Assembly (NCBI GenBank): GCA_002352205.1
Contig: DEHZ01000015.1
Location: 186,001-250,000, forward strand
Direction: 5' to 3'
Origin: Flavobacterium sp. UBA2787
Lineage (GTDB): Bacteria > Bacteroidota > Bacteroidia > Flavobacteriales > Flavobacteriaceae
DNA length: 64,000 nt
Under the pieces are notes generated by a model. The model did no database searches. It saw nothing but the letters and a program-made list of their open reading frames with translations, and was not told the origin of the DNA. The position numbers were made by a program, and so were the translations under genes. This document shows, piece by piece, positions 40,155-61,174 of this stretch (positions are counted from its first letter, which is position 1; each line of letters starts with the position of its first letter).

Positions 40155-42095
40155 TTATTGGCTTGAAGAAATTCGAACATTATTTTGGCTCACTTCATCC
40201 AATCAATATAAAATTTCTTGTTGTGGTGTAAGACTGTGATGTTGGTCAAATAAATTCTTATTTACGCTATAGGAAAACTGAATAATTGGCTTCAGGACTG
40301 CGAAATCCATCTCTTTAACAATACTATTGACATGTTCGAAATTCTCCCGATTATCTCCATTATCTGTGGTAAACACCCTATCTAATGATGACTTAGCCTT
40401 GAATACAACTTGCTTTTCGGGTGTTATAATCATGTTCGAAAACAGCAAAGAAGTAATTTTTCTCTTTCGAACATAAGGGGCATTATCATACATCTTGTTC
40501 ATTTTATCAAGTCATCGAAGAAATCAATCAAGTTCCAATATAGTGTTTCTGTGATTAACAGAGAGTTTACCCAGTTCGTTCTGTAAATAATCAATTTGAC
40601 TCTCATACTTTTGTATATCATTTTGATATACTTTTTTTTGAAATTCATCAGGATTATTCTGCCTGTTAAAATTTCTTGCATAATTTTCCATTAAAGAACT
40701 AACATGATTAATCTGAAGTTGTAATTTTCTCCTTGTTTCATTTATACTTTTCATTGTACGGTCATATTCTTTAATTTGGAATTCCCTGTATTGTTCATAA
40801 TTGTTTTCGTTGATTTGGAAAGATTTCTTGAGAAAGTTGGAGACTATCCTAATAAGTTCATCTCAACGAAAAGAAAGTTGTTTGTGGTCAATTTTTATAC
40901 CAGTTAACTTATAATTAATCTGATGAGGTTTAACGACATCTTTCAGGGTTGCATTGGGATTGTTTACTTTTAGTTTTTCTAGTGCTTTACGATGCCTTTT
41001 AGGATTAGGCAATTCAAAAACAAACCCATGTGTCCCATTATATTGTATAAACTGATTTGGAAATAACTTTATCTCATCATATTCATCAATAGTTTTGTAT
41101 GACCTCAAAGAAACGGGGTTTACTAGTAAATGCCTATCCAATAATACTTGATGTTCTTCTTCTGTAATGAGCGGCTGATAATGTGGGTTTGCTCCGTCAC
41201 GTAAATCAATCTCATTGTTACCACTAATGAGTATTCCATAATAAAAAGGGTCTAGCCAAATTCTGTACAATCATTTTACGTTGAGTTTAGATTCCCTGTT
41301 TTTGTTTTTAAATTTTCTTTTATATCCTGTCGAGATAATATATTTCCCAATAGTTTCGTCTGTTTGGTTCTCATGTATTTTTCTTCTGAATGCTTCTTTC
41401 CAAACATCAAAGTATTCGGGGTCGGGTTCGTGATATTTTCCTTCATTGATTATATATCCGTATTTATGCTTACCATCTGCCTGACCTCTTTCATTAACCC
41501 CCAACTTTCCACGCCCGATATTTTTACTAAGAACATCCGAGTAATTGTAAGAGATTACAAAATTGATTCATAGTATCATCCTTCCGTTTTCATTGTTCTC
41601 AAAGGTAAAGTTGGTATATTGTACATCTAAGTAGTTTTGATCTATCAGCTGAACCAACTCTCCACTTTCTACAAGATTTCTAGCGTGCCTATCAGGAGCA
41701 TAACTAAGTATTCATTTGATTTTTCATCTCTTTACCAAGCTAATGAGTTTGCTTCGTAGTGGTCTGTTGTTTGGCGTTTTAGCCGATTTTTGTTCCACAA
41801 CATAAAACAAGCCTTTGGCTCTTTCCAATATGGACTGTTCATAAGAACCTTTGCATTCACTATTCCGTCTTTGAAAACTTTCATCACGGAAAAATTCATC
41901 AGTTAATTCATTGTGATGTGCTACACTCAACTTTTTTTGTTCGGCATAATCCAAACAAGACCTTAATTGGTCTAAAAGACTTTGCTTTTGTCCATCACTG
42001 CTTTCTTCTCTAGATTTTCTGCAATAAATGACATACTTTATATGATCCCTATCCAATATAGGGTTCTTCGTTGAGACTCTTTTATTTTTGAGCAT
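40155..42095 (-). CDS. Large serine recombinase, TGA read as glycine (8 in-frame TGA)
   Basis: 646 aa when TGA is translated. The frame runs from ATG 42095 to TAA 40155 with TGA codons at 41724, 41712, 41568, 41271, 40863, 40524, 40512 and 40203 and no TAA or TAG. The resolvase domain is at the start: YVIYCRKSREESSDGQKQS with the catalytic Ser in CRKS, then KIK-TGA-ILSYAPDRHARN and GRMIL-TGA-INFVISYNYSDVLS. In both, families have Gly at the TGA site. The recombinase domain follows (GRGKLGVNERGQADGKH, NVK-TGA-LYRIWLDPFYYG), and the C-terminus is a long coiled coil. It would catalyse integration or excision of the element. In a standard-code host it is cut after about 123 residues. It is convergent with the gene to its left. 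Confidence 0.9.
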
Positions 42096-42186
42096 TTCGA
42101 TATATAAAATGTAAATGTTCGATTTAGATAAATTTATTATACAGATATGGTTTAAAATTGCAAATTATAATCGAACATTTAAGCTA

Positions 42187-42216
42187 CAAAAAAAGCTACC
42201 TCGTTTTTGAGGTAGC
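42187..42216 (-). terminator. Rho-independent terminator (minus strand)
   Basis: Stem GCTACCTC (42195-42202) pairs with GAGGTAGC (42209-42216), followed on the minus strand by seven T. The TAG stop of the preceding 73-aa recoded gene lies inside the stem. Confidence 0.8.
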
Positions 42217-42417
42217 TTCAGTTTCTTTTTCAATTTGCTCAATTATCCGCAGGAGTTCGGATAAAATCTGTCATTCAGAAATATTCTCTTTATTCTCTTT
42301 ATCAAACTCCAATCTAAATCAGGTAATAATAAAGTTTTTATTTCCAAAAGGTTTCTGTTTTTCTAGTGATTGAACGGTTCATGAGGATTTTACTTGGCTT
42401 TTTATTTTTCTCTTCAT
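42196..42417 (-). CDS. Small protein, TGA read as glycine (3 in-frame TGA)
   Basis: 73 aa, ATG 42417 to TAG 42196, with TGA codons at 42379, 42319 and 42271. It reads MKRKIKSQVKSS-G-TVQSLE, then FIIT-G-FRLEFDKENKEN, and ends in a helical acidic segment (LRIIEQIEKETEA). No family recognised; it is basic at the start and acidic at the end, like small DNA-binding or antitoxin-type proteins. It sits between the methylase and the recombinase on the same strand, 27 bp from the former. The clean continuation through three TGA and the terminator overlapping its stop support it as a real gene. Confidence 0.65.
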
Positions 42418-42444: not shown

Positions 42445-43269
42445 CTATATTGGATAATTAGCCACAAGTACTTCTTTTTTTCTTCTGACAGTTCAGCCGT
42501 TTGTGTTGTGACTGGCCGATAATGGCTTGTCAAAAGTTTTAACATACCAATTATGCTTTTTGATAAACTCATCTAGAATTTCAGAAGGATAATTAGATAA
42601 CAGGAATTTTCATTTCACGTTTGCCAACACTTCCAAATCACGAATAAAATGTTCTTTTTCATAACCTCCGTAGTGTCATTGGTTTGTTCAGATATAAGGC
42701 GGGTCGCAATAGATGAATGCATCAATTCTGTCTCTACTTTGAATAACCTTATAAGCATCATTTTGTTCAATTTGGGTATGGCGAAGTCTTTCCATTAAAT
42801 CAATTCCAAACATCTCAACTTTGTTTTTAAATACTTGGGATGACCTTTTTTCCTTGTCGTATCATCGGCTACCAATTTTATTCAGAAAGCCTTGATTGGT
42901 TACGACATAAAATGCTCGTGCTTGAATGACTTTATCATCTGCAAACAACCAAGGGCAATCATAAATCAGCAATGCTTTTCTGTAGGTTTCTCTACTGTGG
43001 AGCGTATCCTTGATTTTCTTTTCAAGTTCACTTCAATTGTTTTTCAATACCTGATAGAAGTTAATCACGTTCATGTTTACATCATTAATAACTTCACACT
43101 TGGCAGGTTTCTTTGCTCGATATAGACTTCCTCATCAAAAGAACGGCTCAATGTAAATGTTGTGTTCGGGTATAAGCGGAAGAATATGTTTAAGCATATT
43201 CTGTTTTCAACCGTAATAAGATATAGGTGTTTTTAGTAGTACGTTGGGGTTGTTTGAGTTTTTATTCAT
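42445..43269 (-). CDS. D12-class DNA adenine methyltransferase, TGA read as glycine (9 in-frame TGA)
   Basis: 274 aa, ATG 43269 to TAG 42445. The D12 motif I region reads TPISYYG-TGA-K (43207), then YIEPFF-TGA-TGA-GS (43135, 43132). In this family these positions are YYGGK and PFFGGG, so all three TGA stand on invariant glycines. The catalytic DPPY motif is at 42694-42705, followed by I-TGA-TNQ-TGA-HYGGY. Further TGA are at 43033, 42862, 42610 and 42493. The enzyme would methylate the N6 of adenine (Dam-like), probably protecting the element or regulating it. The reading frame has no other interruption. Under the standard code it ends after about 20 residues. Confidence 0.93.
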
Positions 43270-44008: not shown

Positions 44009-44263
44009 TTATTGAATTAAACCATCCAAACCGAGCCTTTTATAGATTTCCATGTTGTGGTCAAATGCACCTTTACAACGATGGTTTGGCTCACGGTTCT
44101 TGCCTTCTGTTACATGACAAATCTGATGTGCTTTAAATAAGGTTCTTTTGATTACTTCATTAGCAAGAGGCATATCCTGATAAAATCCTTGACCATTAGG
44201 TTTGAATGGACAGGTCTTGCAATGTGAAGTCATTACAGGAAGTCGCTCAGGGTCTATTTTCAT
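44009..44263 (-). CDS. Small Cys-rich protein (84 aa), probable metal binder
   Basis: 84 aa. HCKTCPFKPNGQGFYQ near residue 15 gives CxxC, followed by HQICHVTEG and HRCKGAFDH, so four Cys and several His could bind zinc or an Fe-S cluster. It lies 1 bp after the 141-aa gene and 11 bp before the 66-aa gene, in a tightly packed minus-strand run. Proteins of this kind are common on phages and plasmids, but no function is assigned. Standard code throughout. Confidence 0.6.
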   Translation of the reverse strand: MKIDPERLPVMTSHCKTCPFKPNGQGFYQDMPLANEVIKRTLFKAHQICHVTEGKNREPNHRCKGAFDHNMEIYKRLGLDGLIQ

Positions 44264-44264: not shown

Positions 44265-44690
44265 TTATTTTAGCCAAATTTTTGTAGCCTTATCAAAACC
44301 AACCCGTTGATTATTTTGATCATAGCCTCTTGTGGCAAGTTCATACCTGATTAGTTTTTCAACAGGAATTTTACCCGCTAGAATAAAACGCAGGATTTCT
44401 CCATGAGTAGACGAGAACAGTCCAATCATTTCTTCCCAATGATGCAATGGGTTTACAATGGTACGTATTGCCTCAATCTGCTCGTAGGTCATTTCACAAT
44501 AGTCATTTGGTATTGGAATAAGACTGGATTTTCTCCTGCCTTTTGTTTCCACCACATTGTACCAATGAGCTTTCTTATCCTGAATGACCCCATAGCTTCT
44601 TTCATCAATACGGTACTTGAAGTTCATCCATAGTGCAACGTCGATGGCTCTTTGCAGGGAAGGATGTGATTTATTGATTTCACTTTCCAT
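44265..44690 (-). CDS. Accessory protein (141 aa), paralogue of the 150-aa protein
   Basis: 141 aa. The segments RAIDVALWMNFKYRIDERSY and IPVEKLIRYELATRGYDQNN, then VGFDKATKIW, are repeated almost exactly in the protein encoded at 45355-45807 (IPVEKLIRFELANRGFDQNN, VGFDKAKEIW). The two are a recent duplication. All-helical with Trp/His residues (HHWEEMIGLF). No family known. Located in the minus-strand run of small genes. Stop TAA; no TGA in frame. Confidence 0.65.
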   Translation of the reverse strand: MESEINKSHPSLQRAIDVALWMNFKYRIDERSYGVIQDKKAHWYNVVETKGRRKSSLIPIPNDYCEMTYEQIEAIRTIVNPLHHWEEMIGLFSSTHGEILRFILAGKIPVEKLIRYELATRGYDQNNQRVGFDKATKIWLK

Positions 44691-44724: not shown

Positions 44725-45330
44725 TTACAGCATCATTACTTTTGCTTCTCCTTTTTTGAGTTGCCCTGTTTTAATCATTTCCGATAAAGCTTGTGTTGCT
44801 TCTTCTTTGGTTGTAAAGAACTTGGGCGGTGGAGTGGTAACAAAATATTTATCCTCTTCACTGACAGAACTATCATAGATACCAAACACAGGAACAGGAT
44901 TGCCTGCCTTATGAGATAAAACTCTGTAATTTGAATAATCATATTCGTCCCACTCAGCAATAGGTTTATCTCTCAAATAATGGCTTTCTTGCCCTAACTG
45001 TTCTAAGGTTTTAAAAACACTTTGAGGAGTGATTTTTGTGCTTTCATATAATTCCAGCATAGCTTGTTCAATTTCAAAGGATAGAATATGAAAATCATCT
45101 CCGATGGCTTCCAAGAGTGCTTCTTTATCCATTTCATCAAATGTTAACCACTCGGGTACTGTAGGAACATATAACCACTTGGCAATGTCCATCAGGTCAT
45201 CTTTGGTGTAAATTTTAAGCCAAACTTTATCCATCGTTCCGACTTCATCAGTTTCCATTCTCTGCTTGAGTTTTCTGAGGAAGTACTGAACCACCAAGCG
45301 TCTTTTTGTTTTTGTTTGTATTTTTTTCAT
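44725..45330 (-). CDS. Accessory protein (201 aa), fused counterpart of the 131-aa and 66-aa proteins
   Basis: 201 aa. Three parts: a basic N-terminus (KTKRRLVVQYFLRKLKQR), a middle IGDDFHILSF-containing region paralogous to the 131-aa protein, and a C-terminal strand-rich piece paralogous to the 66-aa protein. This shows a duplicated cassette in which the domain order is preserved but one copy is split. It follows the 150-aa gene by 24 bp on the same strand. Function unknown. Standard code throughout. Confidence 0.65.
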   Translation of the reverse strand: MKKIQTKTKRRLVVQYFLRKLKQRMETDEVGTMDKVWLKIYTKDDLMDIAKWLYVPTVPEWLTFDEMDKEALLEAIGDDFHILSFEIEQAMLELYESTKITPQSVFKTLEQLGQESHYLRDKPIAEWDEYDYSNYRVLSHKAGNPVPVFGIYDSSVSEEDKYFVTTPPPKFFTTKEEATQALSEMIKTGQLKKGEAKVMML

Positions 45331-45354: not shown

Positions 45355-45807
45355 TTATGAATTATTCAAGTTTTCATTTTGCCAAATCTCTTTGGCTTTA
45401 TCAAATCCGACCCATTGATTGTTTTGGTCAAACCCACGGTTAGCCAATTCAAAGCGGATAAGTTTTTCTACAGGAATCTGATACAGCAGTATAAAGCGGA
45501 GCAGTTCTCCTTCCATCACGGAAAACTTACCGAGTAAATTTTCCCAATGCTCATGAATGTAGGATTCCTTAGCAATAGCTTGTAGCCTTTCATAGGAAAG
45601 GTTTTTGTAATCTTTGGTTAGGGGATAAAAGTTAGAGTCCAATTCCATATCCTGTGCGGTCTGCAAATCTGAAACAGCATAGTTGTCTTCGGGTCCATCA
45701 TAGACCACAAATTGTTTTTTTGTGTTTCTGTATTCAAATTGCAACCAAACCGCCCTGTCAATGGCATTGTCAAGTTCGTTGTAGAATTCCAAAATGTTTT
45801 GTTTCAT
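45355..45807 (-). CDS. Accessory protein (150 aa), paralogue of the 141-aa protein
   Basis: 150 aa, with the duplicated motifs described for the 141-aa protein: DRAVWLQFEYRNTKK, PVEKLIRFELANRGFDQNN, VGFDKAKEIW. Strongly helical, no domain recognised. It is second in the minus-strand run behind the 74-aa gene, with a leader ending AAAACAAAACC before the ATG that is shared in style with neighbouring genes. Standard code, stop TAA. Confidence 0.65.
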   Translation of the reverse strand: MKQNILEFYNELDNAIDRAVWLQFEYRNTKKQFVVYDGPEDNYAVSDLQTAQDMELDSNFYPLTKDYKNLSYERLQAIAKESYIHEHWENLLGKFSVMEGELLRFILLYQIPVEKLIRFELANRGFDQNNQWVGFDKAKEIWQNENLNNS

Positions 45808-45833: not shown

Positions 45834-46058
45834 CTAGTCTCCTTCTTCCTCTGGGTCTTTTGGTTCGCAGTAAATCATGATGGTTGAAAGCAAATGATTG
45901 TAGTCTCCACTCATGGCTTCTTCAATCACAGTTTCAATTTCCTGTTCACTCCAACCTTCTCTTCTTGCCTGACGGCGGAACAAGCCCATAATGGCATACG
46001 CATTTCCATCCACACCCACGAGTTCGAGGTTGAGGGTTTTTCCGATTTTGTTTTCCAT
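45834..46058 (-). CDS. Small conserved plasmid/phage-type protein (74 aa)
   Basis: 74 aa. KTLNLELVGVDGNAYAIMGLF, shortened to its key LVGVDGNAYAIMG, and RREGWSEQEIETVIEEAMSG, DYNHLL and a final CEP segment are characteristic of a small family I have seen widely on phages and plasmids but that has no known function. It is the first gene of the minus-strand run, divergent from the coupling ATPase. Stop is TAG, glycine codons all GGN. Confidence 0.65.
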   Translation of the reverse strand: MENKIGKTLNLELVGVDGNAYAIMGLFRRQARREGWSEQEIETVIEEAMSGDYNHLLSTIMIYCEPKDPEEEGD

Positions 46059-46475
46059 ACGTTTTGTTTTAAGGATTGATAAATTGTTTTAGGTATTTAC
46101 ATTTTTGTTTTCCGTGATTTGATAGGTTCACGGACGGTGGTGCTTGTAAGGATTTTTAATCTTTTTACAAGGGAATCAATCGCAGTTCGACTTTACATTT
46201 TCTAAATATGTCAATAGTAAAATCAGAAAGAAAAAAAGTGTATTTCAATGGGGTTCTTGCATGAAAAAAAGCAGGTATTTCTTGGTGTAGAGTGACATTT
46301 TTCATCTCCTTTGGAGGTTCTCAAAAAGGTAGTTATAAAGGTTGTCAAAACGGTACGCACCAATAGGTGTGGATTTTAAACCTCTTTATGAAAGAACTTG
46401 CATTTTGATGTGAAACAGATATGTACCACCTTCCGTTTTAGTTCTTACTCCATCCAAAAAAATGAAATACTTTAA
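46059..46475. other. 417-bp divergent intergenic region of the element
   Basis: Lies between the leftward run of small genes and the rightward ATPase. It contains an inverted repeat CTTGTAA (46143-46149)/TTACAAG (46165-46171). Between about 46250 and 46475 there are short open stretches in shifting plus frames (with a TGA in each) that could be decayed or frameshifted N-terminal coding sequence of the ATPase. No intact gene is supported. Divergent promoters, and possibly a transfer or replication origin, would be expected here, but I see no recognisable element. Confidence 0.4.
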
Positions 46476-47816
46476 ACGCCTTATTGACTTTGTCCAACTA
46501 ACTGTCAACCTCTATTTTTTAGACCCAAGCCTGTTCCAGTTTACCTTCAATCAATAAAGAGGCATCTCATTATTACGTGAAGAACTGGTTCAGGCAAATC
46601 CGTATTTCTTCAATCATTGTTCTACCAACTTCAATACTCATCGCATAAGAAACAACAGTATAGCATCATCTTAGTAGACCCACATGGAGATTTGGCAGAG
46701 CGTGTATTTGCATTCCGTTTGAACTGACCTAAACCCGAGCGTATCGTGTATATCGACCCACAATGGGAAAAGGATAAAATTCCCTGCATCAATCCGTTTT
46801 GGAAAAAAGTCACCAATCCTATGATGGTTGATTTACTCGCTCAACAGCGAGCCAAAACATTCACAGAACTCATTCCCGATGCAGGTATGTCTCTGCAGAT
46901 GGAAACGCTTTTAAAGCCCTGCTTGGCAGTATTGTTCTCACAAGGAGAATGTGGGTTGTCGGACTTACAAGACTTTATGAATGACCAAGTCAACCAAAAG
47001 CGAATTGAACTGTGAAAAAAGGTTAAGCATCCTGTGTATAGAAATTTCTTTGCCAATGCCTTTCAAAATAAAAGGTATAGCGGAACTAAACTTGCTGTTT
47101 ATACAAGGCTTCAGCACCTGCAAAACAATTACCGTTTTTACCAAATGATGAATGGCAAATCTGAATTTGATTTGAAAAAGGAAATGCAACAAGGAAAGGT
47201 CATTCTTTTTAATCTCTCAAAATGAAAACTGGGCGAGGATACGAGCAAGGCACTTTGAAAATTCATTTCAGCAACACTTTTGAGCATTGCTTTGCAAAGG
47301 GCATTCGAGGATGAAAAATTTAGAAAATCCTGTTATTTGTTTATCGATGAATTTCATAATTCTTGAAGCGGAAGTATTGAAACTATTTTCAGTGAAGCAA
47401 GAAAATATAAATTGCATCTTATTGTATGAACTCAAAGCATAAACCAACTCTCTGCTACGCTCAGGGATATGGTTATCAATAATACGGCTGTCAAACTTGT
47501 TTGAATGAACGGACTTGTGGCATTAAAGGCTCAGGCGTGAGATATAGGAGTATCATTTAACACTTTGAAATTCCTTCCACCTTTTTATTTCTACTTGAAA
47601 CAAGATCATTATCCCTCAGTAAAAATTAAAAGTCCGGACTTTTTATTAAAGCATCCTAAAAGGTATTTTTTATCCAAGACGGAACAAGCAAAACTGAAAA
47701 CTAAAATTCTTGCTAATACGCTACTGTATAGAAATAATGAAGAGGATTTGTCAGCTACTTGAACTCAAAACAGCATAGAGTCCAGCGATAATTTTAAACC
47801 CAAGTTCAAATTATAA
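46476..47816 (+). CDS. Conjugative coupling-type ATPase (VirD4/TraG/DUF87-like), TGA read as glycine
   Basis: About 446 codons from the first in-frame codon after a TAA at 46473 to TAA 47814, with no clear start codon, so the N-terminus may be incomplete. The Walker A reads RHLIIT-TGA-RTGSGKS (TGA 46578), where GxTGSGKS demands glycine. IILVDPHGDLAERVF is Walker B-like, and LFIDEFHNS and the region ARKYKLHLIV-TGA-TQS follow as in coupling or DNA-transfer ATPases. NLSK-TGA-KLGEDTSKAL-TGA-KF (47223, 47256) again has TGA at expected glycines. Ten TGA from 46578 on (46725, 47013, 47364, 47427, 47502, 47538, 47760 as well). It would move DNA during conjugation-like transfer. Confidence 0.85.
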
Positions 47817-51800: not shown

Positions 51801-54800
51801 TCATTCATTAAAAAATGAGGAAGTCAGTTTAGAGTATTTTTATCCTAGCAAGTTCAAAGAAGTAGATAAAATTAAAGATTATGAAAAAAGAAATTCTTTA
51901 GAAAGTGATAAAAGAGAATTTACCCTGTTCTATAAATATGTTATTCCTATTTATCAGCTGAAGTCTGATTTACATACTGGACGAATTCCTGAATCGGAAT
52001 GCTCAGTTAAATTCGAAGATATATGCAAAAGTATAAATAAAGATTATAATTTTAAACATCAATTCGGATATTGGGCAAATGATAGATTCATCTTTTTGTC
52101 TGGAAAATTAACAGAGATTGCTCTGCTGTTTGATGATAAAACTACGCCTATCAATCTTATAATTAACTCTTTAGACAGTCAGACAGACAAACTGAAACTT
52201 AGGTTTGAAGTTTTAGATAAAATAGTTTTGCTGAAAGATTTAATTAAAACCTCATTTAGATTATTAAATGAGTTAGATAGAATAATTAATGATTCTCAAT
52301 TATCTTCAAAAGAAATTATTGAAAACTATATTAAGTGCTTATTAATGAGTCATAAAATTAATGATTCCTTAAGTAAAGACTTTTTTGACAAAGCGATAAA
52401 AGCAACTTCCGATATAGATTATGAAGCGTTTATGCAAATTCTAAGCATCTATTACCTATCAGAAATAGGAATTACTAAACCCAACCCTAAATTAGCTTAT
52501 GAATATGCTCGTTTTATTGAATATTGTGATATAAAATTGGGAGCTTATGACAAAAAGCATTTTCCCTACACGGAAGGGTTGTTAGGAATAGGCAATATAG
52601 ATACACCTTCAATGTTTGCTACAATCTGTAGGTGGCATCATAGAAATATAATTGAAATTGGTAGAAGAATAAATTCGTTAATCAAAAAGGCTTTAGAAAA
52701 AGGATACATTGACCATATTGTTGCGGGTTCTCTGCTTAATTTGAAAACAAACTATAGTTATGAAGAATTAGAACAAATATATAAACTACTACTCCTAAAA
52801 TTTGACGAATTAGGCAATTCTGAATTAAAAAGCAGTTTTATAGAATTAGAATTTCGGAATTTAAGACTTGATAAGGATAAGCATTTTACAAGAAAAATCT
52901 ATGATGAAATAAAGTCTGGAAAATTTGTTGATAGAAATATTGTTTCTGAAATAAAGAACTATATAGATTTTTTAGATACGCTTGAAGATAAAAAGAGTAA
53001 GACAGAAGAAAATAATAATTTCAAAAAAGAAGACTTTACCCATAATATTGATTTAACTAAGATAGATTATACTTCAACCAAAGAAATAGAAAAAGCTATT
53101 GACTCCATAATCACAAACAATACTGACAGTTACAATCACCGATGGAGTATAGATAATTTTCTATCAGATATTTTAGACAAATGCTCTCTTAATGAATACA
53201 CTCCATTTTTGAATGCTTTAGTTGATGTCAGTGATAATTTATTAAGTTTTCATTCTTTTGAAAAAATATTGAAAAAAGCTATTAATGAGTGGGATTTTTA
53301 CCCAGAAGTAAAAAAGTGGAAACAAGAAAAATTTAGATACATCTTACTAACAAAACTTCAACATTTTGACTATGGGAACACTTTAAGTATTTGGTCATTA
53401 CGACAGTTTACAGGTTTATTTAATATTAATGATTCTCAATTAGCAGATATTATAGTGGATATTTTGCCTCAAAAAATAGACCTGCTGTCTGATGAATCTA
53501 TTTATAGTTCCTTTGAGTTGATTAAAAGTAGATTGTCTCCAAGTGAAAATGAAAAATTATTGGTATGGATTCTGGAAAAATGGAATTCAAAAATTAAACC
53601 TGAACTTGCAGATGGTTTTTGGGGCGAAGAATTGAAACCTCCGACTAATGCTAATGAAAATGTAGCTTATTTGTTAAGATTCGGTTTGGGGCATCCAGAC
53701 AAAAAATTACGTTGGAGAGCAATTCATTCTATCAGAAGATTGGTAAATCTTAATAATGTAGAAATACTTAAAGTATTATTAGACAACCAAAATAAAAAAG
53801 AATGTTTCCCTTTTCAGAATAAGGAATATATTTATTATTGGATGTCTTCTAAGTTATATCTTTGGATTGCAATAGATAGAATTTCTCTTGAAAATCCTGA
53901 AAAACTTATTCCTTTTAAGGATATTTTTTATAATGAGCTAATGAATAATGAGTTGCCTCATGTTCTTATCAGACATTACATTCAAAAATCTTGTTTGAAC
54001 CTTCACAACTTTAATAATTTTATATATTCAGAAGCTGAATTTCAAATTATCCAAGGAGTTAATAAGACTAAAATAGGATATGTTGAAGAGAAAAAATACA
54101 GCAGACAACAAAGGAAATATTCTACAAAGTCTAAAAAAGAATGGCGATTCAGATTTGATTCAATTGATACTTTACCCTACTGGTACAGCAGAGTTGGAGA
54201 CGCCTTTAATTTATCAGAGTATGATGTGGCTGATGTAGCCGACAAGTTTATTACTGAAAATTGGGGTTATACAGGAAATCCTAATAAAGATGATTTTATC
54301 GGAAGCCAATTGTATGATAGAGATTTGTATTTAACGAGAAATGACCACGGAAGTAATCCTGAGATAGAAGATTTATCGATATACTTTGAATACCATGCAA
54401 TGTATTGTGCTGCTAATTTTTTATTAGAAAACGAACCTCTATTAGAGACAGACTCTTGGGATAGTTGGGATTATTGGTTAGATTCGGAAGCTAATGCCTT
54501 TAATGATTTTTGGTTGTCGGATTTAAGAGACCCTCGTCCTTTAATCCCAAAATATTGGAAAAATGATGTTGATAAATTTGACAAATTATGGAGAGATTTT
54601 ATTGCAGAAGAATACTTTGATGAAGGCGTAGGATTTTTGGATGATAGAGATAACAAGTTTTTAAATATATACGGAGGAATTTCAAAAAATGTTGGAGCCA
54701 ATCAAGAGACAATAAGTTTTAGTTCTTGCCTTGTACCAAATAAAGGAGCCGATGCTTTATTGCGAGCATTACAAACTACTAAAGATAGCCACGATTATTC

Positions 54801-55326
54801 AATTCCTTTTGATGAAGAAGACCAAAATGATAGGCCTACCTTTGATGAAGATGGTTTTTATTTAACAGGATGGGTTGTGGATATTAGAAGTGAGTTTGAA
54901 GGTCTTGATTCAGATGATGCTTTTTTTAATAATACTTCTAAAGGATATATAAAATTTGGTAAAACAGTACATACTCATTTTAATATCAAATATGATAATC
55001 TCTATAAATATGGCTACTTAAAAAATCGTCCTATAAGTGTATTTGAAAATTGGAATGAGATATCAGATGAAGAATACAGGTACAAAAAATACAATACAGA
55101 TACTGAATCTTCAGGAAGTGTTTTTAAAGTTGATACTAATTTTATATTAAGTTTTCTGAACGCAGAACAAAAATCCTTAATTATAAAATGTGTAATAGAT
55201 AGGCAACTCGAAGAACGAAAATACAAGGAAAGATATGATGATAACAGAACTCACGTAAAACTATATTTAATTAAACAAGATGGAACAGTCAAAACGCTCA
55301 GAGGACGAAATTATAAAATTGGGTGA
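48868..55326 (+). CDS. Giant STAND NTPase with N-terminal nuclease-like domain (Avs-like)
   Basis: 2152 aa, standard code. The N-terminus SSAGDDFHILWAIKKSLELL, then ILISQLKYSTRR (residues 80-92, Q-x-K), resembles PD-(D/E)xK nuclease-like effector domains of the Cap4/DUF4297 kind. A NACHT/STAND-type P-loop GGAGIGKST is at residues 319-327, with Walker B FLVFIIDAAD at about 414 and a TSRSYR sensor-like motif at about 458. The remaining 1500 residues are alpha-helical repeats, the usual sensor part. Such proteins detect phage proteins and degrade DNA. It has no in-frame TGA and only GGN glycines, and its stop is TGA at 55324, overlapping the next gene by 47 bp. It therefore reads as standard-code DNA inside a recoded element. 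Confidence 0.85.
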   Translation: MADYRTIPDADLSSAGDDFHILWAIKKSLELLNFDNSSLKAITIEGFEKNLTRKIDPFGEKFLGIDLTEYFGGKDFESAESILISQLKYSTRRANENFTFSKLYEGKKVNSNAGSIIHRLATIFKTFLDEFGRDEVIKKVKIKLVSNRNINTSHLDQINQIQNYLIKNKRTLSFNTILKEFPEISKEPYSKLRKASGLNLNDFSDFIRLLDFEDCGTSSRQVLKFDLIKSISKASIKSQNQFNSLFKMIWDKMMPENREERTITLIDIVANFGFSSIENLFPVSQHFENNPNTIQREQLNEIISVIEGNKSYLPICIHGGAGIGKSTIVHQIKNTLPEYSECILFDCYGAGKYQNPEDKRHLHRNAIIHLANELAKKVGTEFLLVQNESDDVYLRELIKRIRDGVEILRNRNSLAFLVFIIDAADNSITAARNNGEKSFVEELLHIEIPDGCHIIVTSRSYRKESLNLPNKYTDVELKPFSLEETTLFARKSFSSIINEEITEFHQFTKGIPRVQFYSLSLKKQGINEIINYLKPNGKDVGDLILDKIEHAIVRIGKDKKPLVEQFFKLLISLPRPVPIGYLSEIMEVELDFLKDLSSDIWNGLIFDEDLFSFRDEDFENYIGETYQISLEELQQITRIFLSKSETDEYASVNLGSLLFTAEYKTELVDIVLNRKLLILPKDPIRNKEVYINRTKLALKVSNDIHDDLTYFKLLFIAAEESKTDKALSNLLINYPDLVSRYGDEVSLSRLKLKSEEKPWAGAFHLKLAGVYSRKPETKEISLKHLRTAREWLNWRSQKKKEELKDYPISSLDIAYEVEAVLRLFGLSEAVDAINRWKPREVRLSSGKYLIENIISFSSKENIEEWLKHSIFRIDTKLFIICKLFQCNQPINFDLKVTANHLLSILSKKQIKFEEDFWQLIPQFCRILAQHKIEAKTILDILNFVNSKPIDKIPYFHNDYADAKEEIAMDITLAKETLIHSLKNEEVSLEYFYPSKFKEVDKIKDYEKRNSLESDKREFTLFYKYVIPIYQLKSDLHTGRIPESECSVKFEDICKSINKDYNFKHQFGYWANDRFIFLSGKLTEIALLFDDKTTPINLIINSLDSQTDKLKLRFEVLDKIVLLKDLIKTSFRLLNELDRIINDSQLSSKEIIENYIKCLLMSHKINDSLSKDFFDKAIKATSDIDYEAFMQILSIYYLSEIGITKPNPKLAYEYARFIEYCDIKLGAYDKKHFPYTEGLLGIGNIDTPSMFATICRWHHRNIIEIGRRINSLIKKALEKGYIDHIVAGSLLNLKTNYSYEELEQIYKLLLLKFDELGNSELKSSFIELEFRNLRLDKDKHFTRKIYDEIKSGKFVDRNIVSEIKNYIDFLDTLEDKKSKTEENNNFKKEDFTHNIDLTKIDYTSTKEIEKAIDSIITNNTDSYNHRWSIDNFLSDILDKCSLNEYTPFLNALVDVSDNLLSFHSFEKILKKAINEWDFYPEVKKWKQEKFRYILLTKLQHFDYGNTLSIWSLRQFTGLFNINDSQLADIIVDILPQKIDLLSDESIYSSFELIKSRLSPSENEKLLVWILEKWNSKIKPELADGFWGEELKPPTNANENVAYLLRFGLGHPDKKLRWRAIHSIRRLVNLNNVEILKVLLDNQNKKECFPFQNKEYIYYWMSSKLYLWIAIDRISLENPEKLIPFKDIFYNELMNNELPHVLIRHYIQKSCLNLHNFNNFIYSEAEFQIIQGVNKTKIGYVEEKKYSRQQRKYSTKSKKEWRFRFDSIDTLPYWYSRVGDAFNLSEYDVADVADKFITENWGYTGNPNKDDFIGSQLYDRDLYLTRNDHGSNPEIEDLSIYFEYHAMYCAANFLLENEPLLETDSWDSWDYWLDSEANAFNDFWLSDLRDPRPLIPKYWKNDVDKFDKLWRDFIAEEYFDEGVGFLDDRDNKFLNIYGGISKNVGANQETISFSSCLVPNKGADALLRALQTTKDSHDYSIPFDEEDQNDRPTFDEDGFYLTGWVVDIRSEFEGLDSDDAFFNNTSKGYIKFGKTVHTHFNIKYDNLYKYGYLKNRPISVFENWNEISDEEYRYKKYNTDTESSGSVFKVDTNFILSFLNAEQKSLIIKCVIDRQLEERKYKERYDDNRTHVKLYLIKQDGTVKTLRGRNYKIG

Positions 55327-55969
55327 AAAACTAGTAAAAGAATTAGATTTAGAATATTCCGTAAATACTTTGGCAAGATGGATGTCTCATTATCTTGCTG
55401 AATTAATCCATAACATAGATAATGCAAAATCAAAGGAAGAAAAGAAACTACTTCAAAGAGAGTGTTGTGATTTAATTCTTAAAGTTTGGTCGCAAAAAGA
55501 AAGTTTACCAATTAGAATACCTTCAGACGATTTAAAACCAGTTATAGAGATATTACAAGTTCTTAAAGAAGAAAAAGATTCAGGCATTTTACCACGTTGG
55601 TTTGGCAGAAGTTGGAATTTACCTCATAAAAATCAATGGGCTTCTTTTGTTGATTTAGTTAAAAATAACTCGGAGGAAATTTTTGACAAAGTTGTTCAAA
55701 TGAATTTACATAAAGATATTTTATGCAAGGATGAAAAATGGATTAAAGAAAATAAAGAATTTCTGAGTAAAGAAGAGATAAATTTCCTTGAACTTCTGGA
55801 TGTTCTTAGCCAAAATGACAAAAATAAAAGTGGGGTTATTGATTTGAATGATTTTGAGTTATCAGATGATAATGAACAGAGAATAGATTTTATGTTTAAC
55901 GAATTAGAAAGACTTATTGATGAGCAGAAACAAGAATTATTAAAGATTAAAATGAGCTACAAGAAATAA
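55280..55969 (+). CDS. Companion protein of the STAND NTPase
   Basis: 229 aa, helical and charged, overlapping the end of the STAND gene by 47 bp. It contains ARWMSHYLAELI, CCDLILKVWSQKESLPI, GILPRWFGRSW and a C-terminal acidic helix (FNELERLIDEQKQELL). Small proteins encoded beside STAND defence genes may be accessories, for example regulators or adaptors; this role is inferred from context. No known domain. It ends in TAA, 26 bp before the end of the recoded 137-aa gene on the opposite strand. Confidence 0.65.
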   Translation: MEQSKRSEDEIIKLGEKLVKELDLEYSVNTLARWMSHYLAELIHNIDNAKSKEEKKLLQRECCDLILKVWSQKESLPIRIPSDDLKPVIEILQVLKEEKDSGILPRWFGRSWNLPHKNQWASFVDLVKNNSEEIFDKVVQMNLHKDILCKDEKWIKENKEFLSKEEINFLELLDVLSQNDKNKSGVIDLNDFELSDDNEQRIDFMFNELERLIDEQKQELLKIKMSYKK

Positions 55970-55994
55970 TTCATTTTATAATTATCAAAAAGGA

Positions 55995-56408
55995 TTATGC
56001 TTTCACATAATCCGCTAGGTTATTTAAAACATATCCTGTTAGTCTTGAATAGAAAAGGTACTGTCACAGTTGGAGTAAGCCTACCATTCATCTTGATTGG
56101 TCAAATCAAAATTCATTTAAGGCATCGTCAATCCACCATTGGAACTTTGGTGCCTTTTCCCATAAAACAGAATTATAAATATCAACTTGCGAATCAGCCC
56201 ATTCACTTGCTAGGTCACAATAGTGGTTTCAGTCTTTATTTTGGTCATTTCGGTAATCACAACCTTCAGTAATTTCAATTTCATAAGACGATAAGAAATC
56301 GTTCGCATACTCCAATAATTGTGAATTAGTTAGCACATCATAAAAGTCGGTGTCGCAAAACTCTAATTGCTTAAGGAAGTTTTCTGTTGATTTTTCGAAG
56401 TAAGTCAT
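55995..56408 (-). CDS. Hypothetical protein (137 aa), TGA read as glycine (4 in-frame TGA)
   Basis: ATG 56408 to TAA 55995 with TGA at 56229, 56106, 56088 and 56064. It reads MTYFEKSTENFLKQLEFCD, EITEGCDYRNDQNKD-G-NHYC, LWEKAPKFQWWIDDALNEF-G-FDQSR-G-MVGLLQL-G-QYLFYSRLTG. The frame is completely clean otherwise, and the sequence has an amphipathic, protein-like composition with Trp/Phe clusters. No family recognised; it could be an antirestriction-like or plasmid-maintenance protein. Its presence on the far side of the standard-code STAND genes shows the recoded element continues past them. Confidence 0.75.
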
Positions 56409-56858: not shown

Positions 56859-59800
56859 TTAAAACTTCCATTCGGGATAGATATCATTTTCTACTATTTG
56901 AATTGCTATTTCTTTAAGATACTCTGGCACTTTAAAATTTTCATCTTGAATGGAACTGATTATATTTATTGCTGTCTTTTTAGCTTGAGGTCTTAATGAA
57001 GGATGCCCTAATGCTATTTTGATGTGGTCTCCGTAATGTACTTTTTTAAACAGTATGGGAATTGAGTAATTTATTTCTATTTTCCAACTCATTAAAATAT
57101 ATTTACATGTAGATTCTATAATATTTGGAGTTTCACGATAACTATAAAGTACATTTGTTACAAAATCACGCCTGCTTTTTCTCCAATTTTTAATTATATC
57201 AATAGCTTCTCTTTGCCATAATGCGTGGTTTTTAAAATTAATCCTCAATAGATTAGCATATTGAAAAGATTTTCCTTTTAAAGTTATTTTAAAATTGTGA
57301 TGATTATATATAATTTCTTTTATGACATCATTAACTATAACTGAAAAATGTTTTTCTTTCTCAAAACATAATAATGAGTTGTAAACAATTCTCCAATCAT
57401 ATCTCTTCCAATCCTTTAGAGTTAATAATGCGAATTCTTTATTTCTTGATATTCTTAGACAACTACAAATAGTTCCATAAGGAATTCTAGTCCAATTCCC
57501 ATCATTCAATACATCATCAGAAAATCTTAGTTTTATCTCTTCATCAGCGTACTTTAAGCAGTTATTAATTATTTGTTCAGAAATAGCTTTCCAATTTTCA
57601 TCATTCAATACCTCATTAGAAAATCTTATTTTTATCTGCTCATCAGCATAATTTAAACAGATACATATTATTTCAGCAGAGGTGTGTCTCCAATTTTTAT
57701 CATTTAATACTTCATCTGAGAAACTTTGTTTTATTTCTTCATTGACATAATTTAAACAATTATTGATAATTGCTTGATTATATTTTTCCCAATTTTTATT
57801 ATTTAATACTTTATTTAAGAAATTTTGTTTTATCTCTTCATCTGCATAATTTAAACAGATACAAATTATTTCAGCAGAAATGTGCCTCAAATTTTTATCA
57901 TTTAATATTTTATTTGAGAAACTTTGTTTTAGTTTTTCATTCTTAGAAATAATTAAGCAGTCTATTAATATTGCAGAAGGAATATCTTCCCATTGTCTTT
58001 CATTCAAAATGTCATCTGAGAATTGTAATTTTAATGATTCATCCGCAAAATTTTTTAAAACTATACTTATAAAAAGGGGATTAAAATTAAGTAATTGCTG
58101 AACACTTAAAATATTTGAAATATTTTTACTTATAAGCTTATCTTTTTTATAAGTTTTGGCATAGAAATTCCAAAAAGCAGGCACATAAATTTTTTTATCC
58201 CATAATTTCTCTGCGTATTCTTTTATAAGTTCATCTTCTAAGTTCATGCCAATGAGGCTTATTAAGTAATAATAGTAGCTATTATTTTTTGCTAATAATT
58301 TATTAATCAGCAGTAATTTTTCTTTCCTATTAGTAAATATTTGTTTTTCTCTTTTTAGCATAGTCCCCAAGAATGTAGAGGCAGAATTATTATCCCCAAA
58401 ATCAGTAATTACTTCTAATAAATCGACCTTCACTATATCACTAAATCCCCAATCTATTTTACTCAATCCTTCGTCAGCCAAAATATCGTGATTGAACTGA
58501 ATGAAATTTTTGTCACTATATTTTCCTAAACTATAATTTTTATTGATATATGTTTTTAGCTTATCTAAAACAGGGTCTTCCATATTCCAACGGCTAAAAT
58601 ATTTGCTGATTAATTTGTTTTCATTATAATGATCTGCAATGACTAAAAAAGTATCATACGAAATAAAAATTCTGTGTTTTTCATAAATACAAGCCCAGTA
58701 ATAAAGAGCTTTGGCTAATCCTTTATATTTTTTATCCTCAGCATTAGTAATAACTTTTAAATCATTTTCAATTATATCAATAAATGCTTTTTGAGGTTTT
58801 GAGAAATTAAGTAGAGTGTTTTTATTTTGATTCGCATACGCCATTATAAAAAGCAACAAGAATAGTGAACATTGATAATTATTCTTATCAGCAAATAATT
58901 GATCTGCTATTTCTTCCCATTCTTTATTATTCTCAATAATTGTTTCAATAATAGATTCATTTTCATCAGGAGATAATAAAATAGGCTCTCCGTCAAGGAG
59001 ATCTTTACATTTTTTTTCAACAATTCTGTCACCAACTACAATTCGCATATTTGTAAATGAATCTGCCTTCTTTAGAAATTTATATGCAATCTCTTTGTCA
59101 TGTTCTGTGATACGATACCAATCTTCTATAATAATCAAAAATGTTATACCGTAGCTTTGTTCAATTTTTGATAAACCTTTGCTGTAAAAATCCTCAAATC
59201 CATTATCATTTAACCAAACAATCTTAATTTGCTTCTGCAAAGGTTTTTGTGTTTCTTCTAGGCTTAATTCAATAGCCAATCTTCTTAGTAAGGTACTCTT
59301 ACCACAGCCTCCACTTCCATAAATTATACTAGATATTCCACTGCTTTGCTCTTTAAAACTTTTTATAACGATGTTTTTAATCTTGATGTAATCTTTTCGG
59401 ATTACATCAAAACTATATAAGATTCCATACCATTGGCAATTTTCATTTTGCTTTGCTGTATAGAATTCTGCCATTGAGAACTCTTGTTTTTTAATATTAT
59501 CAATAAACTCTTCATTGATAATTATTGCTCCTGAAATTTGAAGTGTTTCGATTTTTACATCAGTAGAAATTTGATGTTTCTGTCGAGTAATGCTGGTTGA
59601 TGTTTCTTGTCCATATTCCCGCTCTTGATACTTGCAGAATGCTCTAAAAAAATCAAGTGTCTTGGGATTCTGCTTTGAGTTGTTTTCAGGATTTAGAAAA
59701 TCTTCTATGGTTTCAATATGTATAAGACAGTCATTCAAAAGTTTATCGTAGTAATCAGCTGTTTCTGATTTGTTTTTCAAAAAATTTTTAAAATACTTTG

Positions 59801-60017
59801 TTTCAAACTTACCGATTATTTTAGCTCTGAATTTCTTTTTAGCATTTGTATCATCATTGTTAATCTCTCTGAAATCATCATTGATTGCAACCAATATATC
59901 TCTTACATCATCAATAATCCATTTGTAAATTGCCGATTTAGAACGCATGTTTTTATTACGCTTTTTTTCATCGTCTATATATTTATTTACAAGATTGCGT
60001 AGTGAAAATTGTTCCAT
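56859..60017 (-). CDS. STAND/NACHT-like NTPase with an array of 33-35-residue repeats
   Basis: 1052 aa, standard code, no TGA in frame, stop TAA. A helical N-terminal region (1-175) is followed by a P-loop NTPase with Walker A YGSGGCGKST near residues 229-238 and Walker B-like FLIIIEDWYR. The C-terminal half has about six nearly identical 33-35-residue helical repeats (residues about 645-845) of the form ADEEIK-x-x-FS-x-x-VLNDxNW-x-x-x-x-x-x-II-x-x-CLNY. The best match is between repeats two apart. STAND proteins of this build act as sensors in antiphage defence, with the repeats binding the trigger. No separate effector domain is visible, so the N-terminus may be a novel effector. Confidence 0.8.
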   Translation of the reverse strand: MEQFSLRNLVNKYIDDEKKRNKNMRSKSAIYKWIIDDVRDILVAINDDFREINNDDTNAKKKFRAKIIGKFETKYFKNFLKNKSETADYYDKLLNDCLIHIETIEDFLNPENNSKQNPKTLDFFRAFCKYQEREYGQETSTSITRQKHQISTDVKIETLQISGAIIINEEFIDNIKKQEFSMAEFYTAKQNENCQWYGILYSFDVIRKDYIKIKNIVIKSFKEQSSGISSIIYGSGGCGKSTLLRRLAIELSLEETQKPLQKQIKIVWLNDNGFEDFYSKGLSKIEQSYGITFLIIIEDWYRITEHDKEIAYKFLKKADSFTNMRIVVGDRIVEKKCKDLLDGEPILLSPDENESIIETIIENNKEWEEIADQLFADKNNYQCSLFLLLFIMAYANQNKNTLLNFSKPQKAFIDIIENDLKVITNAEDKKYKGLAKALYYWACIYEKHRIFISYDTFLVIADHYNENKLISKYFSRWNMEDPVLDKLKTYINKNYSLGKYSDKNFIQFNHDILADEGLSKIDWGFSDIVKVDLLEVITDFGDNNSASTFLGTMLKREKQIFTNRKEKLLLINKLLAKNNSYYYYLISLIGMNLEDELIKEYAEKLWDKKIYVPAFWNFYAKTYKKDKLISKNISNILSVQQLLNFNPLFISIVLKNFADESLKLQFSDDILNERQWEDIPSAILIDCLIISKNEKLKQSFSNKILNDKNLRHISAEIICICLNYADEEIKQNFLNKVLNNKNWEKYNQAIINNCLNYVNEEIKQSFSDEVLNDKNWRHTSAEIICICLNYADEQIKIRFSNEVLNDENWKAISEQIINNCLKYADEEIKLRFSDDVLNDGNWTRIPYGTICSCLRISRNKEFALLTLKDWKRYDWRIVYNSLLCFEKEKHFSVIVNDVIKEIIYNHHNFKITLKGKSFQYANLLRINFKNHALWQREAIDIIKNWRKSRRDFVTNVLYSYRETPNIIESTCKYILMSWKIEINYSIPILFKKVHYGDHIKIALGHPSLRPQAKKTAINIISSIQDENFKVPEYLKEIAIQIVENDIYPEWKF

Positions 60018-60067
60018 AGGGCAATTTAAAAAAAAAACGCATTATTGGAAATATAGTACAAAGAATT

Positions 60068-61174
60068 TTATTTATTACTTGCAGGATTAACTTCTAAAAA
60101 GAAAGATATTATTCCGTCATCATTGTAGGTTTCTTCACGAAAAACATGAGTATCATCTTCAGTATATACAATCATAGCGATTAAGCCGTCTTCTTTATTT
60201 TGATATGGAATAAGTAGATTTTTTCTTGTTAGCGTATATAATCATGAAGCAATCAGCATAATAAGATTATCGTTTGCTGGGTCTTCTATAAAATCGGTGT
60301 CAATTTTCACATTTAATCCCAATTGGTTTGCGACTATCTGCATCAATTTATACTGAAAGTCTGCACATTCTTCTATGGAAGTAAAGGGTTTCGCTCCAGC
60401 ATCTTGCAAAAATTCAGTAAGTTTTGAATCTTTTTTGATTCGGGGAAGCGATTCGTTATTCGCGTTATCCTCATTAATGGTATTCAAGTCATGTATGGTA
60501 AACTTACTGTATGTTTTTTCAGCAGGCATCATAGACGAAAAGTGGATACCATCAAGATTGCTGATAGTAATTCCTTTATCATTTACTGTTTCACTATAAT
60601 TCAAATTTTTGAGTTTTAAAAGTTCTACTCACTGTATTGAATTATCCTCCTCATTGGCAAAATTTACTATCTCTTTCCAAATTTTTTCTTTTTTCTGTTC
60701 CAATGTTTCAGGTAAATCCCGAGAACGTGTATTTTGAAAATTTTCTAATTTTTTTCAATCATCGACACGAGAATTCACATATTGTTTGATTTTATCTAAG
60801 GAAATGTATTTGCCATTTTTATACAATATGTGGTCTTCCTTTTGCATATCCAGACTGCCATTTGTTATTGAATTCTGTACCCAAGCAGGAAATTGTCACT
60901 TATATCTTTTTACAATCGAGTCAAAAGTTTCCTGATATTCATCCAGTATATTAAAAAAATCATCTCTTTGTCTTGGTGATAATTCTGATTCTTCATCGTC
61001 CAAACATTCTAAAATACCTTCAAAATAGCTTTGTTTGAATCTCGTTCCGTTTGACAGATGCTTAAATATTTTTTTTGCGAAATCACTTTTCAAAGCCTCA
61101 TAGGGTTTAGAAATAGAACATCTCTTTATCTCTTGTTCTAAGTTGATTTCTTGTAGAAGTTCATTAGATGACAT
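60068..61174 (-). CDS. Hypothetical protein (368 aa), TGA read as glycine (4 in-frame TGA)
   Basis: From ATG 61174 (MSSNELLQEINLEQ; a GTG is one codon earlier) to TAA 60068. TGA at 60896, 60755, 60629 and 60242; no TAA or TAG in 369 codons. It reads VKRYK-G-QFPAWVQNS, NSRVDD-G-KKLENFQNT, NSIQ-G-VELLKLKNL and IMLIAS-G-LYTLTRK. Helical and charged in the first half (SPRQRDDFFNILDEYQETFD), beta-rich in the last part (LNVKIDTDFIEDPANDN, EDDTHVFREETY). No family recognised. It lies 51 bp upstream of the start of the STAND gene on the same strand and could be part of the element's maintenance or transfer machinery. Confidence 0.75.

What the first reader, a model, noticed from the sequence alone, without database searches (positions are those of the whole stretch)
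40155..61174. Seven genes in which TGA encodes glycine, as in Absconditabacteria/Gracilibacteria
In the recombinase, 73-aa, methylase, ATPase, replication-relaxation, 137-aa and 368-aa genes I count 42 in-frame TGA and no in-frame TAA/TAG until a final TAA (4) or TAG (3). The TGA occur at invariant Gly: Walker A of the ATPase (TGA-RTGSGKS, 46578), YYG-TGA-K (43207) and PFF-TGA-TGA-G (43132-43137) of the methylase, and two resolvase positions. UGA=Gly (table 25) is known only from Absconditabacteria (SR1) and Gracilibacteria lineages and their phages. Trp stays TGG, so TGA=Trp is excluded.
Basis: partly seen in the sequence, partly recalled or inferred. Interest (0 to 1): 0.95.

Follow-up and report, generated by a model that had tools for sequence, protein, structure and literature searches.

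The report
Mobile element written in two codes
A mobile DNA element in ordinary Flavobacteriales bacteria carries one set of genes readable only with the unusual genetic code of the tiny, host-dependent Absconditabacteria and another set readable only with the normal code, which suggests that it shuttles between two kinds of cell that read DNA differently.

Summary
In detail: seven genes carry 43 in-frame TGA, no TAA/TAG, and end in TAA (4) or TAG (3). TGA is glycine. The source is not a CPR bin: the window lies in a 99.98%-complete Flavobacteriales genome that keeps RF2, and no tRNA with anticodon UCA was found (39 of 40 tRNA hits typed). Relatives of the element occur in named Chryseobacterium, Motiliproteus and Colwellia strains.

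In the TGA-coded genes of the Flavobacteriales elements CGA and CGG are tryptophan; in the standard-code mobility genes of the same elements they are arginine. UGA=Gly plus CGA/CGG=Trp is the published code of Absconditabacteria. Gammaproteobacteria relatives show UGA=Gly with CGA=Arg.

Three gene classes appear: "R" (ATPase, Replic_Relax, recombinase, methylases, Ocr-like antirestriction; Rep3 in relatives), written for the foreign code; "S" (TraG, MobA relaxase, second recombinase), written for the standard code; "B", which largely avoid all three ambiguous codons. Best explanation: a dual-code shuttle between standard-code bacteria and Absconditabacteria/Gracilibacteria. The codon meanings are shown; the shuttling is inferred, and no copy was found in a code-25 genome.

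The parts
40155..42095 (-). R gene: large serine recombinase, 8 TGA (Gly) and 6 CGA/CGG (read as Trp)
   Evidence: Resolvase PF00239; relatives in L069 and L074 also TGA-coded; codon list
42196..42417 (-). R gene: 73-aa protein, 3 TGA
   Evidence: relative in L069 with 1 TGA
42445..43269 (-). R gene: Dam-type adenine methylase, 9 TGA (Gly), 3 CGA (Trp)
   Evidence: PF02086; sites compared with 75 standard-code homologues; codons; start codon
43363..43815 (-). backbone gene std190, start uncertain; the longer frame holds 1 TGA at its 5' end
44009..44263 (-). B gene std84, no TGA
   Evidence: CGA/CGG 1 of 18 Arg codons over 4 genes
44265..44690 (-). B gene std141, paralogue of std150
   Evidence: CGA/CGG 2 of 29 Arg codons over 3 genes
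44725..45330 (-). TGA-free backbone gene std201; does not clearly avoid CGA/CGG
   Evidence: CGA/CGG 9 of 62 Arg codons over 10 genes
45355..45807 (-). B gene std150
   Evidence: CGA/CGG 0 of 47 Arg codons over 8 genes
45834..46058 (-). B gene std74 (phrog_1933, unknown function)
   Evidence: CGA/CGG 0 of 23 Arg codons over 8 genes
46462..46521 (+). 20-codon ATG leader ending in T TTT TTA (46515-46521); possible -1 frameshift into the ATPase frame
   Evidence: same 60-nt leader and heptamer in 6 of 6 TGA-coded Flavobacteriales ATPases examined
46522..47816 (+). R gene: VirD4/HerA-like coupling ATPase
   Evidence: DUF87, TrwB_AAD_bind, T4SS-DNA_transf; 11 TGA over 46476-47816
47874..48725 (+). 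R gene: Replic_Relax protein, 4 TGA
   Evidence: PF13814, 21.3 bits, below its cut-off of 25.3
55995..56408 (-). R gene: Ocr-like anti-restriction protein, 4 TGA
   Evidence: phrog_2568 in 5 of 5 relatives, best E 6e-11, own copy 3e-4
60068..61174 (-). R gene: 368-aa protein of unknown function, 4 TGA
62385..62738 (+). S gene, unknown function, first gene of the standard-code module
   Evidence: 56% identical copy in C. defluvii
62768..63436 (+). S gene: JAB-domain protein
   Evidence: Prok-JAB slightly below cut-off; copy in C. defluvii
63439..64000 (+). S gene: ThiF-like (name by recall), runs past the window; the S module goes on with TraG, DUF2958, MobA relaxase and serine recombinase at L005:513-5824
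37025..38356 (+). standard-code cargo: defence protein PD-T7-1
   Evidence: PADLOC E 6e-155
48868..55326 (+). standard-code cargo: Avs3a defence NTPase, ends in TGA
   Evidence: PADLOC E 2e-246; stop
55280..55969 (+). standard-code cargo: Avs3b
   Evidence: PADLOC E 3e-22
56859..60017 (-). standard-code nSTAND-like gene
   Evidence: weak nSTAND_NTPase5 match, below cut-off; relatives beside the 368-aa gene in C. defluvii and C. candidae

Best explanation
The window holds an integrated mobile element that works in two kinds of cell with different genetic codes. In its standard-code Flavobacteriales host the S genes (TraG coupling protein, MobA relaxase, serine recombinase) integrate and mobilise it, and the cargo supplies phage defence. 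The R genes (recombinase, methylase, Ocr-like antirestriction, coupling ATPase, Replic_Relax; in relatives also a Rep3 replication initiator and a C5 methylase) give correct proteins only where UGA=Gly and CGA/CGG=Trp, that is in an Absconditabacteria cell, where they would protect, establish and pass on the element. Genes that avoid TGA, CGA and CGG can be read in both. Gammaproteobacteria relatives use UGA=Gly with CGA=Arg, as expected of a Gracilibacteria-like partner. SHOWN: the codon meanings, the gene classes, purifying selection on R genes, presence in several hosts. INFERRED: the partner cell, transfer through its type IV secretion system, and the role of each protein.
For: UGA=Gly: logL 229 for Gly against -157 for the next residue over 154 sites in Flavobacteriales R genes, and 49 against -51 over 60 sites in Gammaproteobacteria; 63 of 76 methylase TGA sites have Gly as majority in standard-code viral homologues. 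CGA/CGG=Trp in Flavobacteriales R genes: CGA W 140, R -124 (54 sites); CGG W 83, R -72 (29 sites). In S genes of the same elements, each gene counted once: CGA R 223, W -166 (107 sites); CGG R 59, W -50 (33 sites). Against standard-code homologues 35 of 44 methylase CGA/CGG sites have majority Trp and 0 majority Arg. UGA=Gly with CGA and CGG=Trp is the Absconditabacteria code (passages of PMC8629427). B genes (std74, std84, std141, std150; 23 genes) use CGA/CGG in 3 of 117 Arg codons and four TGA-free ATPases in 1 of 60, against 145 of 457 in 40 S genes and 98 of 470 in 26 host genes. A TraG relative lies on the contig of the ATPase in 11 of 12 elements with a TGA-coded ATPase and in 0 of 7 tested with a TGA-free one (Fisher p 1.6e-4). 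TGA ends 0 of 80 S and std genes with a readable stop, against 7 of 52 host ORFs. No UCA tRNA was found. R genes are under purifying selection. [quoted passage not shown]
Against: No copy was found in an Absconditabacteria or Gracilibacteria genome: the one genome-contig scan gave 24 loci, none titled as CPR; it used two short peptide patterns, and CPR genomes could not be reached otherwise. ATPase clades follow host taxonomy and R-gene GC differs between hosts, so the elements live long in standard-code hosts. In Gammaproteobacteria CGG is undecided (11 sites). Pfam scores hardly change when CGA/CGG are read as Trp. TGA-free Replic_Relax genes (5 of 60), std201 (9 of 62) and c39818 (5 of 14) avoid CGA/CGG weakly or not, while two cargo genes also lack them (0 of 27, 0 of 18), so avoidance is not confined to the backbone. 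G048 has no TraG on the contig of its TGA-coded ATPase, and its Replic_Relax gene has no TGA. Homologues are not independent, so P values are optimistic. Genes of a T4SS channel were not searched for; none was seen among the proteins annotated.
Confidence: 0.82

Rival explanations
1. Regulated code switch inside the standard-code host: the R genes are locked and are expressed only when an unrecognised element- or helper-encoded tRNA set is made, as in code-switching phages.
For: The R set would also make sense as an induced programme; ATPase clades follow host taxonomy; the tRNA inventories have gaps.
Against: No tRNA with a UCA anticodon in the elements or in the typed tRNAs of two hosts; RF2 is kept. 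It would also need CGA/CGG to mean Trp in R genes and Arg in S genes of one cell, and would match the published Absconditabacteria code by coincidence.
Confidence: 0.08
2. Dead insertions: the element belongs to Absconditabacteria/Gracilibacteria, and the copies in other bacteria are one-way, non-functional insertions.
For: The R genes cannot be read correctly by the known machinery of the host that carries them.
Against: A standard-code S module with CGA/CGG=Arg is kept together with the R module; code-neutral genes exist; the cargo is standard-code defence; the architecture recurs across genera.
Confidence: 0.08
3. Assembly chimera, contamination by CPR contigs, or ordinary pseudogenes.
Against: The same architecture lies inside long contigs of named strains C. 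limigenitum SUR2, C. defluvii S00151, C. candidae JC507, Motiliproteus MSK22-1 and Colwellia 1_MG-2023; the seven frames hold no TAA/TAG; pN/pS is 0.09-0.36.
Confidence: 0.02

Closest known systems
Genetic code of Absconditabacteria (UGA=Gly, CGA/CGG=Trp); Gracilibacteria (UGA=Gly, CGG=Trp in some)
   Same: R genes of Flavobacteriales elements show exactly the Absconditabacteria meanings; Gammaproteobacteria relatives show UGA=Gly with CGA=Arg.
   Different: There it is the code of a whole cellular genome with its own UCA tRNA; here it is confined to some genes of an element in a standard-code genome.
Code-switching phages with suppressor tRNAs (described in PMC10746230)
   Same: Standard and recoded genes in one mobile genome.
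   Different: No suppressor tRNA was found here; three codons differ; the recoded genes are establishment and mobility genes, not late structural or lysis genes; a second mobility set exists in the standard code.
Phages linked by spacers to both CPR and standard-code bacteria (PMC10746230)
   Same: Relying on stops other than TGA lets genes be read under both codes, like the B genes here.
   Different: Here separate gene sets are written for each code, and CGA/CGG are involved too.
Integrative mobilisable elements with TraG, MobA and a serine recombinase (kind named from recall)
   Same: The S module is of this kind.
   Different: The second, foreign-code module.

Membership tests
NCBI genetic code 25 (Absconditabacteria/Gracilibacteria) | UGA encodes Gly | tested here: met
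   for the R genes:
NCBI genetic code 25 (Absconditabacteria/Gracilibacteria) | UGA is sense genome-wide and RF2 is absent | tested here: not met
   own genome has RF1-like and SPF-type RF2 proteins (motif by recall); 7 of 52 host ORFs end in TGA
NCBI genetic code 25 (Absconditabacteria/Gracilibacteria) | tRNA-Gly(UCA) | tested here: not met
   none among the 39 of 40 tRNA hits typed in the own genome, none in stretches covering 68 of 70 hits of C. defluvii, none in the elements; inventories have gaps
Absconditabacteria code | CGA and CGG encode Trp | tested here: met
   Flavobacteriales R genes only; Gammaproteobacteria relatives have CGA=Arg, CGG undecided
Code-switching phage | encodes its own suppressor tRNA or release factor | tested here: not met
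   no tRNA in the element; none of the four RF-domain hits of the own genome lies in the element
Integrative mobilisable element | integrase, relaxase and coupling protein | tested here: met
   S module at L005:513-5824
Integrative mobilisable element | attachment-site repeats at both ends | tested here: inconclusive
   tRNA-Asn beside the right end (L005:7601) but no second copy in the 124 kb searched; two tRNA-Asn copies 51 kb apart around the C. defluvii element
Conjugative element (ICE) | own T4SS channel genes | not tested
   no dedicated search

The most novel reading that the evidence does not exclude
Absconditabacteria and Gracilibacteria share a mobilome with the standard-code bacteria they live on, carried by bilingual elements that hold separate gene sets for each code plus code-neutral genes. 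The code of the R genes then names the partner: Absconditabacteria for Flavobacterium-type and Chryseobacterium hosts, Gracilibacteria-like cells for Colwellia and Motiliproteus.
Probability: 0.7. Interest if true: 0.98.

Novelty: categorically new. Interest (0 to 1): 0.97.

Why it matters
A different genetic code is usually seen as a barrier to gene flow. Here one DNA element appears to be written in two cellular codes that differ in three codons, with mobility functions present once in each code and code-neutral genes between them. If it shuttles, it is direct evidence of DNA exchange between CPR bacteria and their hosts, gives a sequence-based way to name the unknown hosts of Absconditabacteria and Gracilibacteria, and offers named carrier strains (Chryseobacterium, Colwellia, Motiliproteus) for experiments. 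Annotation with the standard code would break such genes into fragments, so they are easily missed.

Tried and rejected
Pseudogenes, chimera or contamination: rejected. TGA=Trp or Arg: rejected. Suppressor tRNA in the elements: ARAGORN with several settings, Rfam with relaxed thresholds (window 30-64 kb, L068, L069, L075), and a home-made UCA-cloverleaf scan whose best score was 17.8 against 28-29 for real tRNA-Asn genes and 17-18 for chance GTT hits; a whole-genome anticodon/T-loop pattern search returned 97 places against 75 in its control and was not informative. A tRNA-like structure in the ATPase intergenic region: not supported. Viral scans with the single ATPase, the recombinase and the Ocr-like protein found no relatives; scans with the ATPase alignment and Rep3 found 3 and 2 distant ones. 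Promoter comparison: sigma70-like signal upstream of 18 R genes (z 4.5) but not of 21 S/cargo genes (z -0.3) or 25 host genes (z -0.3); it comes mostly from three related 368-aa genes, and some R start points were approximate, so it is weak. GC of R genes varies with the host. Reading CGA/CGG as Trp hardly changed Pfam scores. Structure prediction of the Ocr-like protein did not run; its profile search of solved structures found nothing.

Rows dropped or not tested: three hits of the standard recombinase query with 8-10 TGA (L068, C. defluvii, C. candidae) are the R recombinase and were left out of the S counts (40 S genes, 39 with a readable stop, plus 41 std genes). In some searches viral homologues with unknown residues or stops were left out (75 of 80 and 79 of 80 used). 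TraG was sought in 17 genomes plus the own one: TGA-coded ATPases are window, L068, L069, L074, L075, L076, L078, L085, L087, L088, L089 and G048; TGA-free ones tested are L070, L071, L072, L073, L077, L081 and L083 (L072 lies in a genome whose TraG hits are on other contigs). TGA-free L080, L082, L086 and L090, and L079, L084 and L091 with one TGA each, were not tested. In the ATPase tree the TGA labels of L080 and L093 come from upstream extension or a long joined frame (0 TGA in their aligned parts), so its seven changes are too many. An earlier count gave the TGA-free group as 6 because L072 was left out there.


Full report
WHERE IT IS. The window is bases 186001-250000 of a 477-kb contig of an unnamed 3.73-Mb genome, 99.98% complete. 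The genome is in the same order as G085 and G151, whose contig lengths and positions are those of Chryseobacterium defluvii and C. candidae, so it belongs to Flavobacteriales. It has RF1-like and RF2-like proteins, the latter with the SPF motif (motif recalled). Of 40 tRNA hits 39 were typed and none has anticodon UCA; the other has two masked bases and looks like a Met tRNA. The left 30 kb reads as ordinary chromosome; the element reaches from about 31 kb to about L005:7228, next to a tRNA-Asn gene. Its exact left end was not found.

THE OBSERVATION. One search gives 43 in-frame TGA in the seven genes, no TAA or TAG, and final stops TAA 4, TAG 3. The R proteins are a serine recombinase, a Dam-type methylase, a VirD4/HerA-like ATPase, a Replic_Relax protein with a score below the family cut-off, and an Ocr-like antirestriction protein (phrog_2568 in 5 of 5 relatives); two have no informative match.

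NOT ONE GENOME. Of 60 genomes (own one included) 2 had ATPase matches at E 1e-8; of 395 of the order 8 had matches at 1e-20, and 4 of these (own, G048, G085, G151) have in-frame TGA in the ATPase. A scan of the named genome collection gave 24 loci. The nine closest are titled Bacteroidetes, Flavobacteriales, Flavobacterium or Chryseobacterium and include two different elements in C. limigenitum; others include Motiliproteus, Colwellia and further Proteobacteria, with 6-7 TGA in the ATPases of L085, L087, L088 and L089. Largely the same genes carry TGA and the same others do not. Exceptions: the ATPase and Replic_Relax genes of L070-L073 and the Replic_Relax gene of G048 are TGA-free, and the std190 frame holds TGA in window, L068 and L070 at its uncertain 5' part. 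In other elements TGA is also found in a Rep3 initiator (L070, L072, L087, G048) and a C5 methylase (L070, L072, L074). The elements are rare: own and C. defluvii were the only TGA-coded ATPases in 395 genomes of the phylum, and Colwellia the only one in 295 and 369 gammaproteobacterial genomes.

WHAT THE CODONS MEAN. A profile test gave Gly for TGA with wide margins in both groups. Against standard-code viral homologues, 52 of 62 Dam and 11 of 14 C5 TGA sites have Gly as the majority. Among columns where orthologues differ between Trp and Arg, TGG stood opposite CGA or CGG again and again. In Flavobacteriales R genes CGA and CGG are Trp, while CGT, CGC, AGA and AGG are Arg. In S genes of the same elements CGA and CGG are Arg (107 and 33 sites, each gene counted once). 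In the methylases 35 of 44 CGA/CGG sites have majority Trp in the standard-code homologues and none majority Arg; the other nine have majority His or Thr. The Gammaproteobacteria R genes have TGA=Gly, CGA=Arg, CGG undecided. Shulgina and Eddy (PMC8629427, passages read) report UGA=Gly with CGA and CGG=Trp for Absconditabacteria, and CGG=Trp in some Gracilibacteria.

THREE CLASSES OF GENES. Forty S genes use CGA/CGG in 145 of 457 Arg codons, 26 host genes in 98 of 470. The backbone genes std74, std84, std141 and std150 (23 genes) use them in 3 of 117, and the four TGA-free ATPases of L070-L073 in 1 of 60. Together with the absence of TGA, these can be read almost alike in both codes. TGA-free Replic_Relax genes (5 of 60), std201 (9 of 62) and c39818 (5 of 14) show this weakly or not, and two cargo genes also lack CGA/CGG (0 of 27, 0 of 18). 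Stops fit: 0 TGA in 80 S and std genes with a readable stop, 7 in 52 host ORFs. Some cargo ends in TGA (Avs3a and 31584-33260), so it is suited to the standard code only.

TWO MOBILITY MODULES. C. defluvii carries the S module of the window's element at 49-72% identity, and a relative of TraG (down to 24% identity in Gammaproteobacteria) lies on the contig of the TGA-coded ATPase in 11 of 12 elements, but of none of 7 TGA-free ones tested. Where no S module was found, the ATPase is TGA-free and, in L070-L073, code-neutral. This is what a division of labour by genetic code predicts.

SELECTION. Between the window and L068 four R genes have dN 0.06-0.16 and dS 0.9-1.7; there TGA stands against GGN 12 times and against other codons twice. 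In more distant pairs other residues catch up (ATPase against L075: 5 and 7). So the genes are, or recently were, translated somewhere with TGA as Gly.

WHERE. No decoder was found in the hosts or elements. The codes match CPR lineages described as host-dependent or predatory (PMC10746230). [quoted passage not shown] Five of nine predicted Gracilibacteria phages match Bacteroidetes spacers (PMC10746230, passages; abstract, introduction and start of the results). Type IV secretion systems and VirD4-like coupling proteins are widespread in Patescibacteria (PMC12102498, abstract and passages), so a coupling ATPase could find a channel there; the same paper finds few relaxases. A groundwater study of Gracilibacteria found no co-occurring host (PMC11452946, passages).

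LIMITS. No CPR copy was found; the only scan that could have shown one used two short peptides. The ATPase tree follows host taxonomy, so elements live long in standard-code lineages. Roles of single proteins are inferred from families. Eight paper searches listed no title or abstract that reports such elements; most subscription journals and preprints are not in that library, and most listed papers were seen in the listing only.

Noticed in passing
window 46462-46521: A 20-codon ATG leader ends in T TTT TTA, a known -1 slippery heptamer (recalled), followed by the ATPase in the -1 frame; same length and heptamer in 6 of 6 TGA-coded Flavobacteriales ATPases examined, with the -1 frame closed upstream by TAA in window, L068 and L069. 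The T-run may also be kept for its Phe-Phe codons in the ATPase frame, since TGA-free L070 has it too.
   Followed up: partly
L005:7601-7675; G085:C3:39748 and 90968; L088:7604: tRNA-Asn(GTT) genes lie beside or near these elements in three genomes, which suggests a preferred integration site.
   Followed up: partly
window about 47832-47860: A short hairpin followed by T-runs lies just before the Replic_Relax start and is present in the relatives shown.
   Followed up: no
window 61174-61264: The 368-aa gene has TTGACA-N17-TACAAT-like sequences upstream in the window and in L069, unlike Bacteroidetes promoters.
   Followed up: partly
window 30962-39657 and 48868-60017: Cargo includes defence genes: PD-T7-1, Avs3a/Avs3b and a HEC-06-type protein at 31584-33260.
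   Followed up: partly
G048:C6:101968-111064: A TGA-coded ATPase (4 TGA) and a TGA-free paralogue lie about 7 kb apart, with a Rep3 gene nearby that also holds TGA.
   Followed up: partly
   Followed up: partly
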